A DNA stretch of 64,000 nt, from NCBI GenBank assembly GCA_019244165.1, contig JAFATA010000005.1, forward strand, positions 1-64,000, written 5' to 3'. Under the pieces are notes generated by a model. It was not told where the DNA came from and did no database searches. It saw nothing but the letters and a program-made list of their open reading frames with translations. Each line of letters begins with the position of its first letter. Within the stretch, counting starts at the first letter, position 1. Position numbers and translations under genes: made by a program. Below, one piece after another: positions 5,009 to 42,959 of the stretch. The stretch is from Pseudonocardiales bacterium. Its GTDB lineage: Bacteria > Actinomycetota > Actinomycetes > Mycobacteriales > Pseudonocardiaceae.

Positions 5009-5272
5009 GAGCTAACTCCACATTCCACGCGGACCGGCCGTCCAATGACGACCATCCTCGCAGACAGCGGAGACCACCGCCTGCTCTTACGGGGAGGAAA
5101 TCGACGCTCTCGTCCGGCTAGACCAACGTCTAGCGCCTAGCGGACCGGGACTGCCCGTGTGAGTTCGACCAGGTGGGTGAGGAGCACCGGATTACCCGGA
5201 TGTCGCTGACCGTCTCGGCGATGGTGACGGGCGGCGAGAACTACTGCGCCGGTGATGTTGCCCGCATTAACC

Positions 5273-6813
5273 CCAAAGCCGTTCAGTTAGGTCTTGGGCG
5301 GCGGGGTCAAGGACCGGTGTCGGCGTGTTTGATGTCGATGTTGATGGTGGTTTTGTGGCTGGGTCCGCGGTGGCGTCTCTTCGCGCTGCTGGCGGCGTAT
5401 TTGGAGATCGCTCGTTTGACGACGCGTGGGTTGGTCCGTGACCGGCGGGCAGGCATGAGTTGATCTAGCACGTGTTGGCCGATCACACCGATCAGGTCGA
5501 TGGTGGTGTCGGCGATGACTCCGGTGGCGGCGATCAGCTGGTCCCGCGCGGCGTGTAGTGCCACGGTGAAGCTGCCGCGGTCGGGATCGAGGTCGGCTCG
5601 TGCGAGGGTGGCGTCGCTGATCGCGATACGCAGCGCCTGGTAGGTGATCAGCAGGGCGTAGATCTCCTGGTTCACTCCGGTCGGGGTGCGGGCGCGCAGC
5701 ACCTGCCCGCCCAGGCTGGTGGACTTGAGCTCGAAGAATGTGGTCTCGATCTCCCATCGCTGGTGATAGAGGGTGAGGATGTCGAGGGGCGAGCAGTCCG
5801 GGTCGAGCACCGTGGTGATCAACCGGTAGTCCTCGGTGCGCCGCCCGGCGCTGGTGGTGATCGTGATCGTGGCGGTGATCACGCGCACCTCCAGTGGGCC
5901 GAGCCGGGACATGGAGGAGCCATCGCGCAGGCGGCGGCACACCGGCAGCCGGCGGCTGGCCTTGACTCCCACCAGCACGTCGGCGCCGGTGTCGGCGAGG
6001 GCGACGATCCAGGCCGCGACGGCGAAGTTGCGGTCCGCGAGCACGATCATCCCGCGATGCAGCGCGCCCACCAGGGCGTGCGCGTAGCTGATCTCCCCGG
6101 TTCGGTCGGTGCCGAACACCGCGTCGATGACGGTGCGGGTACCGCAGGCCAGCAGCGCGAGCAGCCGGACCATCGGGTAGCCGGTGCCGCCCTGGTAACC
6201 GTTGCCGCGACGGTAGAGCGCCAGGTTGGCCGCGGTATCCGCCCAGCACAGGATGGTGCCGTCGATGGCGCACACCAACCGTCCGCGCCAGTACACCCCG
6301 CGCCGGCTCCCCGGCAGCCCCGTACCGGCCTGCGGCCCGCGCAGCAGATCGAACAACGCCCGCAACGGAGCGACGCCGATCCGACGGCGCGCCGCGGCCA
6401 GCGCGCTCGACGTGGGGCAGGCCACCTCCAGCCCGCCCAACCCGGCACACATCCGCGCCCACACCTGGCCGTAACCGAGCTCGGCGAACAACGCGGCCGC
6501 CAGCAGCAGATAGACCACAACCCGCGACGGCAGCGCCCGCAGCCGCTGCTGGACGCTGTTGGTCTCAGCCAGCGCGGCATCGACCATCTCGAACGGGACG
6601 ATCTGGGTCAGCTCACCAATATGGCCCGGCGCGTACCGCCCTCCAGCCACCTTGACCACACGCCTGATGACAGAATCCATGCTCAGCGGAACTCCCGATA
6701 GCGAGGTTGTCTTGGTCGACGCCCTCTCATACCTGGAGTTCCGCTACCTCATGCCGCGACACGCCGAAAACGATCTTGACTGCCGGCAGCCGCCACTAAC
6801 TGAACGGCTTTGG
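5273..6813 (-). mobile_element. Intact IS4-family insertion sequence with 8-bp target duplication
   Basis: Terminal inverted repeats share an identical 18-bp core, CCAAAGCCGTTCAGTTAG at 5273-5290 and its reverse complement at 6796-6813. The 8-bp sequence CATTAACC lies immediately outside both ends (5265-5272 and 6814-6821), a clean target-site duplication. One transposase gene fills the element. Perfect flanks and an intact gene point to recent insertion. It separates the GreA-like gene from the XRE pseudogene. Joining the flanks gives no convincing protein, so the target was probably intergenic. Confidence 0.92.
5307..6680 (-). CDS. IS4-family DDE transposase
   Basis: This 457-residue transposase starts at ATG 6680 and ends 17 bp inside the left inverted repeat. 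An N-terminal domain (MDSVIRRVVKVAGG, typical of actinobacterial IS4 members) precedes the RNase H-like core: AIDGTILCWADT (first Asp), IVLADRNFAV (second Asp), and the YHQRWEIETTFFELK region carrying the catalytic Glu in the Y-(2)-R-(3)-E-(6)-K signature. It cuts and pastes the element. No stop or frame break is seen, so it is probably active. Confidence 0.92.
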   Translation of the reverse strand: MDSVIRRVVKVAGGRYAPGHIGELTQIVPFEMVDAALAETNSVQQRLRALPSRVVVYLLLAAALFAELGYGQVWARMCAGLGGLEVACPTSSALAAARRRIGVAPLRALFDLLRGPQAGTGLPGSRRGVYWRGRLVCAIDGTILCWADTAANLALYRRGNGYQGGTGYPMVRLLALLACGTRTVIDAVFGTDRTGEISYAHALVGALHRGMIVLADRNFAVAAWIVALADTGADVLVGVKASRRLPVCRRLRDGSSMSRLGPLEVRVITATITITTSAGRRTEDYRLITTVLDPDCSPLDILTLYHQRWEIETTFFELKSTSLGGQVLRARTPTGVNQEIYALLITYQALRIAISDATLARADLDPDRGSFTVALHAARDQLIAATGVIADTTIDLIGVIGQHVLDQLMPARRSRTNPRVVKRAISKYAASSAKRRHRGPSHKTTINIDIKHADTGP

Positions 6814-6929
6814 CATTAACCCGGTCGCAGTGTCGTTACGCTGGGAGTACCTCTTCACGGAGGGACGGCCCCGGTTAACGATGGGGTGCACACGAAGGGG
6901 CACCTACTCTGCGAAGAGAGGCGCTAGCG

Positions 6930-7841
6930 ATGGTGGGACGAGACCGGAGGCTCGGCGAACGGCTCGCGCAGCTGCGACGCCGACGCGGGATGACCCAGGA
7001 AGCGCTAGCCGAGCGTTCCGGTGTGAGTGTGTCGGTCATCCGCAAACTCGAACGGGGTGAGCGGGACTCCGCTGGCTTGTCCACCGTGCGAAAACTTGCC
7101 TTCGCACTGGGTGTGCCCACCATGGAACTGTTCGCGCCCACGCCCGCCTTCGCGGGGCCGGTGGTTGCTGATGCGCCAAGGTCGCTTGGACGATGCGATT
7201 GAGGTAGCGTTGAATGCGTCCCAGCGGCTAGAACCCAGCTTTGCACGGCGGACCGGCGGCATTTGTCGTCGTGGGGCTGGCTCAACCTTGGTGTCGCCGG
7301 AGCAGCGGCACGCAACAGTCAGCCTGACTTGATGACCGACGCAATGCGACGCGCGAGCGCGGCGGCAGCCCGCATCGAGGTTGATGGCCCGGGAAACCAG
7401 CAGTGGAGCTCGTTCGGGCCGTCCGTAATCGCCATGCGTCGAACCGAAATGGCGGTTGTGACCGGGGACCCTGTCACGGCTCTGCGGATTGCCCGGCAGG
7501 TGGCCCTGCCACCTCGACCGGCCAACACTCACCACCGATTCCGGCTCGACATGGCGTCCGCACTGTTGGAACTACGCCGACAACACGAAGCGTTAGCCGT
7601 ACTGCTGGCACTTCGGCGCGTTGCACCGAATTGGTTACGGCACCAGCGTTACGCCAAATCCATCACCAGTTCGTTGCTGCGGTCGGCCAAGCGCACCATT
7701 CCGCAGGAACTTCGCGATCTCGCCGACTTCCTCTACGTCGATCTGCGAACTGCCCCACCGCGGGGTAGTTCACAGGTTATCCTCACGCAATCTGACACCA
7801 CCTGTCGCTGGTCTGGACCATGGCGCCGCGTGCATAGTTGA
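6930..7841 (+). pseudogene. Frameshifted XRE-family regulator with TPR-like tail
   Basis: The N-terminal 70 residues form a clear Cro/C1 helix-turn-helix (LAQLRRRRGMTQEALAERSGVSVSVIRKLERGERDSAGLSTVRKLA), followed by MELFAP. The frame then fails near 7165-7200 and helical TPR-type sequence resumes in two other frames (MRQGRLDDAIEVAL; LMTDAMRRASAAAARIEV to LRDLADFLYVDLR). Intact relatives are about 380-400 residues. A good ribosome site (GAGAGGCG) precedes ATG 6930. Such regulators often sit next to small peptide and RiPP genes; here it directly precedes an FxLD-type precursor. It is unlikely to make a functional full-length protein. Confidence 0.75.
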
Positions 7842-8016
7842 CCCGCACCGTGGGTTGGGTCTATCGACTGACTGGAGACTGAGGTAGCAAGCTATGTCGA
7901 AACAGCCACTGCCAGAAGTGGACGGGCCGCATCGCCTGCCGTACGGCGAGCAGGAGCGGCGGTGGAAGGAAATCTCAATTCCGCCCCTTAGGATGGGTTC
8001 CGGTCAAGGAGATCTC

Positions 8017-8211
8017 ATGGCAATCCTCACCGAGGACGCTCCCCGGCCCCACATGGCCATCGACAATATCGCCGTAGACGACACGCCGACCTCCGTCGGC
8101 GCCGACGCCCTCGACCTCGATGTCCGGATTGTCGAGGAAGGCGACGCGATCAACGCGCTGCTGTGTAGCACGGACAACGGGTGTGACACCCGGAAGGACG
8201 GCGACTGCTGA
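8017..8211 (+). CDS. FxLD-family lanthipeptide precursor (probable)
   Basis: The 64-residue product has an N-terminal leader with the conserved block ALDLDVRIVEEGDA, a match to the F/L-x-L-D-V-R-x-V-E motif of FxLD precursors. The short core is rich in Cys/Ser/Thr (LLCSTDNGCDT, ending GDC). ATG 8017 is chosen over the in-frame ATG at 7894 because AAGGAGAT ends just before it and because 60-70 residues is the usual precursor size. The core could form thioether rings between Cys and dehydrated Ser/Thr. It lies 51 bp before a lantibiotic dehydratase relic, which supports the call. No LanC or FxLD methyltransferase is nearby, so maturation is doubtful. Confidence 0.72.
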   Translation: MAILTEDAPRPHMAIDNIAVDDTPTSVGADALDLDVRIVEEGDAINALLCSTDNGCDTRKDGDC

Positions 8212-8262
8212 CCGGGTGGTCATTCTACGGAGGCGGTTCCTGGGTGGGGAGGAAGTATCGGG

Positions 8263-9400
8263 TTGAGCACGGGCAAGCGTTCGCGGTGGTATCGGCATAT
8301 TGATGCGGCGCTGGTGCGCGGCACGGCCTATTCAGGGGAACTCGTTGTTGGGCCCTGGTCTGAGCCGGGGGATGGTGCCGAGGTTGACCGGTGGTGCGCC
8401 TGGTTTGCCGAGGTCTGGCCTCCTGTCGCGGAGGCCGTTACCGTAGCCAGCCCGGTGTTGGCATCTCGCGTCGCGGCGGTGTGCGCAGGGCTGCGGCCCG
8501 GAGCTGGGCAGGCGCGGCGAATGGCGTTGTCGCTGGCTCGCTATCTGGTGCGGATGCGCGGGAGAGCAACACCCTTGTCTTACGGTCATGATGAACGATC
8601 TTGCATTCGTACGGGGTGAACGGCTGGTAGTGCCGTGGCAGCCGCACGCCGGCAACCGGGATCGGAGCACCTCGGCGGAGGTGTCGGTTCGTCACAGCAA
8701 AACAGTACAGACAATCATGCATGGTGCTCGATTACCTATCCGGGTCGGCGATCTGCTCGACAAGCTGACCACCGAGATCCCCGGTGCTGCCGTCTCGGCG
8801 ATTGACGCCATGTTGGCTGAGCTGGTGATGCGCGGTGTCCTGATCACCTGTCTGCGTCCTCCTTCAACCAGCACCGGTGGGCTTGCCCACGTCCTCGAAC
8901 AGCTCGAAGGGGTGCAGGCGGACACGGTCGAGGAGGTGTCCTCGCTGGTGCGAGAGCTGCGCGGGATCCACGCGCAGGCGGGCCGTGTCGGGTGGTGTCG
9001 AGCAGCCGCTGATGGTAGATCTCCGGCTCGGCTGCACCGTGGTATTACCCCCGCAGGTCGCGTCCGAAGCTGAGAAAGCCGCTGGAGCGTTATTGCGGCT
9101 GAGCCCGAATCCAGCTGGCCATCCGGCACTTCGTGACTATCACACCAGCTTCCTCGACCGGTTTGGGGCGGGCTGCCTAGTCTCGGTCGACCAGCTCGTC
9201 GACCCTGTGAGTGGACTCGGGTTTCCCCCGCACTACTGCCAGCCTGGTCGGCCAACCACTCCCGCGGAGATTTCGCGGCGGGACCGTCGCCTGCTGGCAC
9301 TGGCCCAGCAGGCGGCCCTTGACGGCGCGCAAGAAGTCGTGCTGGACGAGACCACCCTGGACGAGCTGGCCGAGGGGAGTTCCGGAATGCGGCCAGCATC
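8263..9400 (+). pseudogene. Fragmented lantibiotic dehydratase (LanB N-terminal type)
   Basis: Three successive frames give one collinear LanB-like protein. The first (TTG start at 8263 after GGGGAGGAAG) gives YRHIDAALVRGTAYSG and ARYLVRMRGRATP, the family motif that normally continues FGLFAG. The second, from 8588, gives LAFVRGERLVVPW and HGARLPIRVGDLLDKL. The third, from about 8950 to 9390, gives GCTVVLPPQVASEAEKAAGALLRL. Dehydratases of this class glutamylate and eliminate Ser/Thr in lanthipeptide precursors. Here a deletion after RATP, at least two frameshifts and loss of everything past roughly residue 400 make it non-functional. The 3' end abuts the MFS gene at about 9400. Confidence 0.75.
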
Positions 9401-10936
9401 TCAGCCCGTCATGTCCTCCAGTTCGCGGCCCTTGGTCTCCCTGACCGAGGTGAGCACAAACCCGAAGGAGATGATGGCGAACGCCGCGTATAGGCCGTAG
9501 GCGAAGGACAGACCGGCATGGGAAAGGATGGGGAAGGTCGTCGTGATGGCGAAGTTGGCCAGCCACTGGGCGGCGGCGGCCACGGCGAGCGCGACCGCCC
9601 GGATCCAGTTGGGGAACATTTCGCCGAGCAGTACCCAGACAACCGGGCCCCAGGTCGCGCCGAAGGAGACGACATAGAGGTTGGCGGCGATCAGCGCGAT
9701 CATTCCCCACGGCTGGGGCAGGCTCACGTTCTTGCCGCTGCCGACTGCCTGGGAGAAGCATGCGGCTATCGTGGCCAGGGTCACCGTCATGCCCAGTGAC
9801 CCGCCGAGCAGCATCGGTTTGCGACCGACCTTATCCACGATGGCAATGGCGACTAGCGTGACGACGACGTTGGTCACTGAGGTGATGACGGTGATCGTGA
9901 GCGAGTCGGATTCGCTGAACCCGACCGAGCGCCACAGGCTGGTCGAGTAGTAGAAGATCACATTGATACCGACGAACTGCTGGAAGATTGACAGGAGGAT
10001 CCCTACCCACACGATCGGGAGCAGCCCGAAACGGGGGCCGCGCAGGTCTGTCAACCGCGGCGCGCGCTGGCTGTCACCTCGCACGCTCGCCACGATGTCT
10101 GCAACCTTGCGCTGCACGGCTTCGGCGCTGCGGGAGCCCAGCACCTCGCGCAGCACCTCCCCAGCTCGGATGAGCTCTCCTTTAGCCACGAGGTGCCGCG
10201 GCGACTCCGGAATCTGCAGCGACAGCACGCCATAGGCCAGGGCAGGGACTAGCCCGGCGAGGAACATCCAGCGCCAGGCCGCCAGCCCGAACCAGAGCTG
10301 CTGGCTTGCCCCGCCGACAAGGTCGGCCAGAAAGGCGTCGGACAGCAATGCGAGGAAGATCCCGGATACGATAGCGAGCTGCTGCAGCGAGCCGAGCCGG
10401 CCACGGATGCGCGAGGGCGCGACCTCGGCAATATAGGCGGGAGCGATCACCGAGGCCATCCCGATGCCAACACCGGCGGCGAACCGCCACCCGATCAAGA
10501 ACCACACCGAGAACGCCAACCCGGCCCCAACCGCACTGATCGCGAAGAGCACCGCGGCCACGAGCATGGCCCGCACGCGACCCAGGTAGTCGGCGGCCCG
10601 GCCGGCATACCAGGCACCCAAGGCCGAGCCGAGTAGCGCGCAGGACACCGCGAAACCGGTAAGGGCGGGACTGAGGTGAAAGGTGCCCTGGATGGAGTCC
10701 ACCGCGCCATTGATCACGGCAGTATCGAAACCGAAGAGCAGCCCGCCGATAGCGGCGACCGCAGAGATCAGGACGACCTTGCCAGTGGCCCGTTGGTCAC
10801 CTTCTCCTGGAGTTGGTGATCGCGGCCTGGGTAATGTCGACTCACTCAGCACCGCAGCTGCGGCCTTCCGGCGATCCGGTTTACGCGACCACACCGCTGA
10901 CAGTGCCACACCAATGACCACCAGCGCCAGCAGCAC
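9401..10936 (-). CDS. Sugar porter of the major facilitator superfamily
   Basis: Twelve membrane segments and sugar-porter signatures are present: GGLLFGFDTAVINGA in helix 1, GRAADYLGRV in loop 2-3, PESPRHL after helix 6, QQFVGINVIFYYS in helix 7 and DKVGRKP in loop 8-9. These proteins are proton-coupled sugar symporters (GlcP/XylE type). The open frame begins at GTG 10936 and adds about 45 residues with an extra hydrophobic stretch (LLALVVIGVALSAVW) that such transporters lack. The family-like N-terminus starts near GKVVLISAVAAIGG (about 10785). The extension reads into the truncated resolvase-like gene and looks like a junction artefact, so the true start is uncertain. Confidence 0.85.
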   Translation of the reverse strand: MLLALVVIGVALSAVWSRKPDRRKAAAAVLSESTLPRPRSPTPGEGDQRATGKVVLISAVAAIGGLLFGFDTAVINGAVDSIQGTFHLSPALTGFAVSCALLGSALGAWYAGRAADYLGRVRAMLVAAVLFAISAVGAGLAFSVWFLIGWRFAAGVGIGMASVIAPAYIAEVAPSRIRGRLGSLQQLAIVSGIFLALLSDAFLADLVGGASQQLWFGLAAWRWMFLAGLVPALAYGVLSLQIPESPRHLVAKGELIRAGEVLREVLGSRSAEAVQRKVADIVASVRGDSQRAPRLTDLRGPRFGLLPIVWVGILLSIFQQFVGINVIFYYSTSLWRSVGFSESDSLTITVITSVTNVVVTLVAIAIVDKVGRKPMLLGGSLGMTVTLATIAACFSQAVGSGKNVSLPQPWGMIALIAANLYVVSFGATWGPVVWVLLGEMFPNWIRAVALAVAAAAQWLANFAITTTFPILSHAGLSFAYGLYAAFAIISFGFVLTSVRETKGRELEDMTG

Positions 10937-41574: not shown

Positions 41575-42807
41575 TCAATGCAGAGCAACGCCAACAGTGG
41601 TGTTGGTTTCCAGCTGTACCCGCTGCCCGGTGGGGGTGATGGTGAATAACCAACGCTCGACTCCGGGGCTTCCGGCGTCCAGCCACCAGCGGCAGGCCGC
41701 CTCGACCTCATCCCACAGCCGCCGCGGCCCGGCCTGGAGCACCGGGAACTCGTCCTGGTCAGCAGTGGGGCTGGTATGGGTCAGCTTGGCCCAGGACCCC
41801 CAGGGATCTACCAACCACAGCACACCCACCGGCTCACTGGGCTCCCAGGGGTAGTACCGCCACTGGCACCCCGGTACACGCTGGCCGATGGCAATCCGTG
41901 CACCGTGCGGCCCAGTGACGTGGTGGGGATGCAGCGTGGTGACTCGAGCGGCAATGACCCGAGTGGCGATGCGCCGGGGGTTGCTCACAGCATCCATCGC
42001 GGGTTTGACAGCGCCCCGGGTTGCCCGCTGCTCCCGCAACCACATGAAGCTGCTTTCCGCCACGATCCTGCCGCTGGCGGTGCCATCCTCGGCCACCGTG
42101 AGCACTAACAACCCGCCCGCTTAGGTGTCTGCCCACGGCACCACGATCCGCCCACCCGGCCGGGTCTGCTGCACCCAGGCGTACGAGACCCGGTTGCAGG
42201 CCGCAGTGACGATCACCCGGTCATACGGGGCGCCGGGCGGGTAGCCGAGCGCACCCTCACCAGTGGCCACGGTCACCGCCCCGAACCCGGCCTCCGACAG
42301 CGCTTTCCTGGCGTGGGTAGCGATCTCCGGATCAATCTCGATACTGATGACCTGCCCAGCACCGAGGCGATGAGCCAGCAACGCTGCGTTATACCCCGCC
42401 CCGGTACCTACCTCAAGCACCCGATGCCCCTCGCGCACATCAAGTGCCGCCAGCATCACCGCGACAATAACCGGGCCCGACGCCGAGCTGGAGGGCAGCG
42501 AACCCCGACCACCAGGACCAGCCGGGCACCCATCATCGACCTGCGTCACCACACCATCGTCTGCTGCGTAGGCCAACCGCAACCACCGATCCGGGCCCTG
42601 CTCGCGATCCAGCGGCACATAAGCCGGCGAACCACCATCCTCATGGTTGGTCACCCACACCGTGTCGGGAAGAAACTCATGCCGTGGCACCGCCAGCAGC
42701 GACGGCTGCCACGGTGCGACCGCGGCCCGCCACCCCGCCACGAACTCATCGGCCAATACCGCGTCCACCATCTGCCGCCGCAGCTGCCCAGGCTGCTCAC
42801 CGCGCAT
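41575..42807 (-). pseudogene. PCMT-like methyltransferase interrupted by one in-frame stop
   Basis: Start ATG 42807 (or GTG 42810). The first 229 codons give an isoaspartyl-methyltransferase-like protein: LRRQMVDAVLADEF, AVPRHEFLPDTVW, TSS-like PSSSASGP, the SAM motif VLEVGTGAGYNAALLAHRLG and APYDRVIVTAACNRV. A TAA at about 42121 follows PGGRIVVPWADT. The same frame then continues at once AGGLLVLTVAEDGTASGRIV to 41575, the normal C-terminal domain. Relatives of about 400 residues are found with graspetide and FxLD peptide systems and on AICEs. It is either dead by one mutation or translated by readthrough. Confidence 0.72.
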
Positions 42808-42959
42808 CACTTCTTCTCGCGCTCACCTGGCCGTTCCTCGGGCTCGTCTGGCTTCTCATGCTTACCGGGCTGACGATGCGGGAACGGTTGCTCCGGCTTA
42901 TGACCATCGTGAATCGGGTTTGGTTGCGGCGTTGGCTCATCGTGCCTGCCCATACTCAT
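42807..42959 (-). CDS. 50-residue His/Pro/Glu-rich peptide upstream of the methyltransferase
   Basis: The frame starts MSMGRHDEPTPQPNPIHDG and ends in a charged tail EERPGEREKK. It has no hydrophobic core and looks unfolded. GGGGGG lies just before ATG 42959, and its TGA overlaps the methyltransferase start (GTGATG), so translation is coupled. It could be the methyltransferase's peptide substrate or only a coupling leader. It is below common length cutoffs. Confidence 0.5.
   Translation of the reverse strand: MSMGRHDEPTPQPNPIHDGHKPEQPFPHRQPGKHEKPDEPEERPGEREKK

What the first reader, a model, noticed from the sequence alone, without database searches (positions are those of the whole stretch)
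6930..9400. Relic FxLD lanthipeptide locus with an apparently intact precursor
A 64-residue peptide with the LDLDVRIVE block and a Cys/Thr core (CSTDNGC) sits between a frameshifted XRE-TPR regulator and a LanB dehydratase broken into three frames. The precursor alone is intact, with a strong ribosome site. That is unusual in a dead cluster. Either decay is very recent, or the peptide is matured by enzymes elsewhere in the genome, or it has another use.
Basis: partly seen in the sequence, partly recalled or inferred. Interest (0 to 1): 0.7.

Follow-up and report, generated by a model that had tools for sequence, protein, structure and literature searches.

The report
Decaying lanthipeptide cluster, precursor still intact
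This is the recent wreck of a small peptide-antibiotic-type gene cluster in an actinobacterium; the peptide gene is still readable most likely because it is short and the decay is young, so it is mostly ordinary, although its peptide belongs to a rare and strongly conserved subgroup.

Summary
Window 8017-8211 encodes a 64-aa FxLD lanthipeptide precursor between a broken XRE-TPR regulator and a LanB that is broken into three frames and cut off at 9397. TIGR04363 matches at 27.7-28.9 bits, just under its cut-off of 30, because the core tail differs. That tail is not decay: nine further precursors from other actinobacteria share TDxxCDTxKxGDC, seven of them followed by intact LanB and methyltransferase genes. 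The relic LanB falls in the same LanB clade. A same-genus genome has the same locus, also broken but by different lesions, with the precursor deleted. dN/dS between the two relic LanBs (0.34) equals that of an intact orthologous LanB (0.33), so decay came after the species split. At the observed lesion density a 195-bp ORF escapes by chance with probability about 0.4-0.7, so an intact precursor in a dead cluster is not unusual. The genome has other LanB, LanC and FxLD methyltransferase genes, but no LanB of the matching clade, so maturation in trans is possible but unsupported. Most likely: a recent relic. New in this report: the CDTxKxGDC subgroup, with two predicted (methyl)lanthionine rings and a conserved Asp for PIMT-type modification.

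The parts
8017..8211 (+). FxLD precursor peptide gene (64 aa plus stop), core ALLCSTDNGCDTRKDGDC
   Evidence: TIGR04363 27.7-28.9 bits; 73.5 bits to an HMM of nine relatives; alignment A2
8006..8011 (+). AAGGAG ribosome-binding site, 5 nt before the ATG
   Evidence: read from sequence
6930..7202 (+). N-terminal XRE (HTH_31/HTH_3) part of the regulator; its frame ends after the deletion junction at 7162-7167
   Evidence: deletion of about 0.4 kb relative to the same-genus locus
7168..7841 (+). TPR-like remainder of the same regulator, frameshifted (1-bp indel near 7248)
   Evidence: 86.8% DNA identity to G003 C28; weak TPR_19 hit; indel
7894..8016 (+). in-frame upstream extension; its start resembles the 5' end of a small gene found elsewhere in the genus (probable fragment)
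   Evidence: 62-76 bp matches in G001, G007, G010 and own C26
8263..8577 (+). LanB fragment 1 (PF04738 positions 3-55)
8579..8977 (+). LanB fragment 2 (PF04738 positions 110-248), after a 149-bp deletion
8976..9397 (+). LanB fragment 3 (PF04738 positions 256-396), after a deletion of about 65 bp; the rest of LanB is missing
5274..6812 (-). neighbouring IS4-family insertion (transposase 5307-6680), 17-bp terminal inverted repeats, 10-bp target duplication GCATTAACCC at 5264-5273 and 6813-6822; absent from G003

Best explanation
The locus is a recently dead class I (FxLD) lanthipeptide cluster of a distinct CDTxKxGDC subgroup. When alive, the regulator would have controlled the cluster, and the precursor would have been bound through its LDLDVRIVE leader motif by LanB. 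LanB would have dehydrated the core Thr residues, LanC would have closed two (methyl)lanthionine rings (Thr52-Cys56 and Thr58-Cys64 in precursor numbering), and a fused elimination-domain/PIMT methyltransferase (fxlM) would have acted on a core Asp, most likely Asp53. In this species deletions broke the regulator and LanB, everything after the first ~45% of LanB was lost, and LanC and fxlM are absent from the locus. The precursor survives as an ORF by chance and because the decay is young. Shown: sequence, subgroup membership, lesions, clade of LanB, relative timing. Inferred: ring pattern, Asp modification, lack of present function.
For: Profile and subgroup membership. Intact clusters with the same precursor type in Catenuloplanes japonicus, G364, G668, G803 and two Streptomyces plasmids; G1044 runs to its contig end. 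The relic LanB is in the same clade, support 99/100. The same-genus G003 locus carries different lesions and has lost the precursor. dN/dS of the relic LanB pair is 0.343 (95% 0.25-0.48) against 0.330 (0.26-0.42) for the intact C78/C45 LanB pair, so the neutral fraction is 0.02 (-0.18 to 0.24). Chance of an undamaged 195 bp is 0.43-0.69 for 9 to 4 lesions per 2070 bp.
Against: No residue that is invariant in the subgroup is lost in the window peptide, and its RBS is good, so a retained function cannot be excluded. Two other precursors of this type are also orphans (G726, S. flavofungini plasmid), which could hint at retention, though the search used the precursor as hook and so favours finding them. 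The assembly is 88% complete.
Confidence: 0.85

Rival explanations
1. The precursor is still expressed and matured in trans by LanB, LanC and FxLD methyltransferase enzymes of other clusters in the genome.
For: The genome has intact LanB at C10, C67, C78 and C18, LanC at C10, C18 and C40, and FxLD methyltransferases at C67, C18 and C78. C67 and C78 pair LanB and methyltransferase with no LanC hit nearby, so sharing of LanC between clusters is plausible.
Against: None of the own intact LanBs falls in the CDTxKxGDC clade; identity to the relic pieces is about 35-55%. No second precursor of this type exists in the assembly. G003 lost the precursor although it has several intact LanBs, one of them of the cognate clade.
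Confidence: 0.07
2. The unmodified or partly modified peptide has been co-opted for another use (for example as a signal or decoy).
For: Intact ORF and RBS; two further orphan precursors of the same subgroup.
Against: Core conservation follows the residues expected for (Me)Lan rings in clusters that have the enzymes. No selection signal independent of the cluster could be measured. The congener deleted the gene.
Confidence: 0.03
3. The frameshifts are assembly errors and the cluster is alive.
For: The genome is a draft of 85 contigs, and its C40 FxLD cluster also shows frame changes.
Against: The lesions include deletions of about 400, 149 and 65 bp relative to G003 and loss of more than half of LanB; the downstream stretch is a different gene.
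Confidence: 0.03

Closest known systems
FxLD family lanthipeptide precursors (TIGR04363) with fxlM methyltransferase (TIGR04364)
   Same: LD leader block, small Cys/Thr core, LanB follows; two of the close relatives on Streptomyces plasmids are annotated with this name, and the third lies before LanB, LanC and fxlM
   Different: The core ends TDxxCDTxKxGDC in place of the canonical C..C.SAC tail; here the enzymes are broken or missing
Lanthimiditides such as OlvA/OlvSA of Streptomyces olivaceus (PMC13001092; PMC7268733 families I 1-4)
   Same: Class I actinobacterial precursor with conserved core Asp and a PIMT-type methyltransferase in intact relatives
   Different: Different core; Asp is followed by Asn or Asp here; the core strings of this subgroup were not found in the searched paper library
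Catenuloplanes japonicus locus NZ_JNXY01000006.1 (L060)
   Same: Same precursor type, then LanB, LanC, fxlM-like and TPR gene in order
   Different: Intact

Membership tests
FxLD lanthipeptide precursor (TIGR04363) | Profile score at or above the curated cut-off of 30 bits | tested here: inconclusive
   27.7 bits as a protein, 28.9 in the genome scan, both just under the cut-off; all ten subgroup members match TIGR04363, best E 1.2e-11
FxLD lanthipeptide precursor (TIGR04363) | FxLD/LxLD leader motif and Cys plus Ser/Thr core | tested here: met
   LDLDVRIVE and CSTDNGCDTRKDGDC
Class I lanthipeptide cluster | Linked functional LanB | tested here: not met
   LanB present only as three frames ending at PF04738 position 396 of 649
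Class I lanthipeptide cluster | Linked LanC | tested here: not met
   No LANC hit on the window's contig C80; copies at C10, C18, C40 and weak hits at C71
FxLD/lanthimiditide system | Linked FxLD methyltransferase | tested here: not met
   The only PIMT-type match in the window is at 42.1-42.8 kb and is nearest to TIGR04188, the ATP-grasp type
CDTxKxGDC subgroup (defined here) | Invariant T-D-x-x-C-D-T-x-K-x-G-D-C end and cognate LanB clade | tested here: met
CDTxKxGDC subgroup (defined here) | Two (Me)Lan rings and modified Asp in the product | not testable with these tools
   Needs mass spectrometry

The most novel reading that the evidence does not exclude
CDTxKxGDC precursors are retained after loss of their own enzymes because they are matured in trans by other FxLD enzyme sets; three independent orphans (window, G726, S. 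flavofungini plasmid) would then be examples of split lanthipeptide pathways.
Probability: 0.06. Interest if true: 0.5.

Novelty: new member of a known kind. Interest (0 to 1): 0.27.

Why it matters
It shows how an apparently striking pattern (live peptide, dead enzymes) can arise from recent decay in a genus with several parallel FxLD clusters. It also defines a rare precursor subgroup with an invariant 13-residue core end, spread over several actinobacterial families, whose window member falls just below the curated cut-off of the FxLD profile. Intact clusters, for example on Streptomyces plasmids, are ready for expression.

Tried and rejected
Core tail as a decayed or frameshifted remnant of the canonical FxLD tail: rejected, since the same tail is conserved in nine relatives. 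Assembly error as the whole cause: rejected by the large deletions. Positive evidence for selective retention from orphan relatives: not accepted, because the search hook was the precursor itself and G003 shows the opposite loss. A search for the core strings in the paper library found nothing relevant. Solved structures gave no relative and phages none. The window's LanB fragments were put in the tree with X between pieces and the two G003 LanB stretches as read; no base was changed.

Full report
Observation. The window lies on contig C80 of an 85-contig, 3.74-Mb actinobacterial draft genome, about 88% complete. The ORF 8017-8211 encodes a 64-residue peptide with a good ribosome-binding site. 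It matches the FxLD precursor profile TIGR04363 over positions 4-29 of 37, at 27.7-28.9 bits against a cut-off of 30. Downstream lie three LanB pieces in three frames, covering PF04738 positions 3-55, 110-248 and 256-396 of 649. LanB then stops at 9397, next to a convergent sugar transporter (9401-10936). Upstream lie an intact XRE domain and a frameshifted TPR part.

The core tail is real. A scan with the peptide found Catenuloplanes japonicus, with the same unusual tail and a complete cluster: LanB 1020 aa, LanC 399 aa, fused methyltransferase 685 aa, TPR gene. Pattern scans for CDTxKxGDC-stop found G364, G726, G668, G803 and G1044; the hits were 2 of 399, 3 of 395, 1 of 35 and 3 of 343 genomes in four partly overlapping samples, the 3 of 395 including the window's own genome (the first scan used a slightly stricter pattern). 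Protein search of plasmids found three Streptomyces records. In all ten precursors L34, V39, G42, L48, L49, T52, D53, C56, D57, T58, K60, G62, D63 and C64 are invariant. An HMM from the nine others gives the window peptide 73.5 bits; the best of 200 shuffles gives 10.7. The two Cys and two Thr that never vary are spaced as T-D-x-x-C and T-x-K-x-G-D-C. This predicts two methyllanthionine rings, plus an Asp inside the first ring in a position suited to the PIMT-type methyltransferase described for lanthimiditides (PMC13001092). Rings and Asp modification are inferred.

Intact relatives define the missing parts. LanB, LanC and the fused methyltransferase follow the precursor in C. japonicus, G364, G668, G803, Streptomyces sp. 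NBC_01454 and NBC_01527. G1044 has LanB and part of the methyltransferase up to its contig end, with no LanC hit. The fused protein of G364 holds both thiopep_ocin and methyltran_FxLD domains. In a LanB tree the window relic and the G003 relic are sisters (100/99) inside a clade (99/100) made only of LanBs of CDTxKxGDC-type clusters and G003 C192, whose precursor ends in the close variant TDNGCDTVQGSDC. The own intact LanBs C10, C67, C78 and C18, and the frame-changed C40, fall outside.

When did it die? The same-genus genome G003 has the orthologous locus beside the GreA-like gene, at 82-88% DNA identity. Relative to it the window lacks about 400 bp in the regulator, 149 bp and about 65 bp in LanB, and all of LanB after 9397. 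G003 in turn lacks the precursor (window 7811-8226 is replaced by 58 bp) and the middle of LanB. The lesions differ. The relic LanB pair has dN/dS 0.343 (95% 0.25-0.48). An intact FxLD LanB present in both genomes (C78 and C45) has 0.330 (0.26-0.42). The implied neutral share of the divergence is 0.02 (-0.18 to 0.24). Decay is therefore recent compared with the species split.

Is the intact precursor surprising? With 4 to 9 lesions in about 2070 bp of decayed coding sequence, a 195-bp stretch is spared with probability 0.69 to 0.43. This is a simple Poisson estimate with lesions counted against one relative. It means the pattern needs no selection. G003 shows that the precursor can also go first.

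Could it still be matured? The genome holds other FxLD sets: LanB at C10, C67, C78 and C18, and at C40 broken by one frame change; LanC at C10, C18, C40 and weak C71 hits; FxLD methyltransferases at C67, C18 and C78, one at C40 in two frames, and one cut by the contig end at C10. Their own precursors, where found, have other cores. Leader recognition across clusters is conceivable, but no cognate LanB is present in the assembly. I put this at 7%. Two other orphans exist. In G726 no LanB, LanC or methyltransferase hit lies in the 19.5 kb fetched; the only LanB found in that genome is of the C78 type. On the S. flavofungini plasmid, homology to NBC_01454 ends 3 bp after the precursor stop, and no LanB is on the record (the control rang nowhere, so it is weak by itself, but the tblastn agrees locally). 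They keep the trans idea open but were found by a precursor hook, so they do not show preferential retention.

Verdict. A recent relic of a known kind of cluster, with a precursor of a rare conserved subgroup. Interest is modest; the subgroup in intact hosts is the better target.

Noticed in passing
window 5264-6822: IS4-family element with 17-bp terminal repeats and a 10-bp target duplication (GCATTAACCC), absent from the same-genus locus in G003.
   Followed up: partly
window 42121-42810 (-) and about 50 other places in G000: The TIGR04364 search gave 60 matches in a 3.7-Mb genome, about 50 of them strong; the window one is nearest to TIGR04188 (ATP-grasp peptide system methyltransferase) and appears split from its C-terminal part at 42.1 kb. 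This looks like a large set of RiPP-type PIMT genes.
   Followed up: partly
L028 (G000 C78) and L111 (G726 C152): The C78-type LanB is 69-81% identical in protein to that of G726, which belongs to another family of the class, suggesting horizontal transfer. The G726 copy changes frame at C152:21135.
   Followed up: no
L089 4788-4823 (G003 C154): A stray 36-bp piece, 94% identical to the window precursor's core, without the final Cys and stop; perhaps the last trace of another copy.
   Followed up: no
L029 (G000 C40): A further FxLD cluster with one frame change in LanB and one in the methyltransferase while its precursor is intact: a second, milder case of the same pattern in this genome, or an assembly error.
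   Followed up: no
window 7894-7970: The in-frame stretch before the precursor resembles the start of a small gene (LPEQDGPHRLPYGEQER...) found in several congeners and at own C26.
   Followed up: partly
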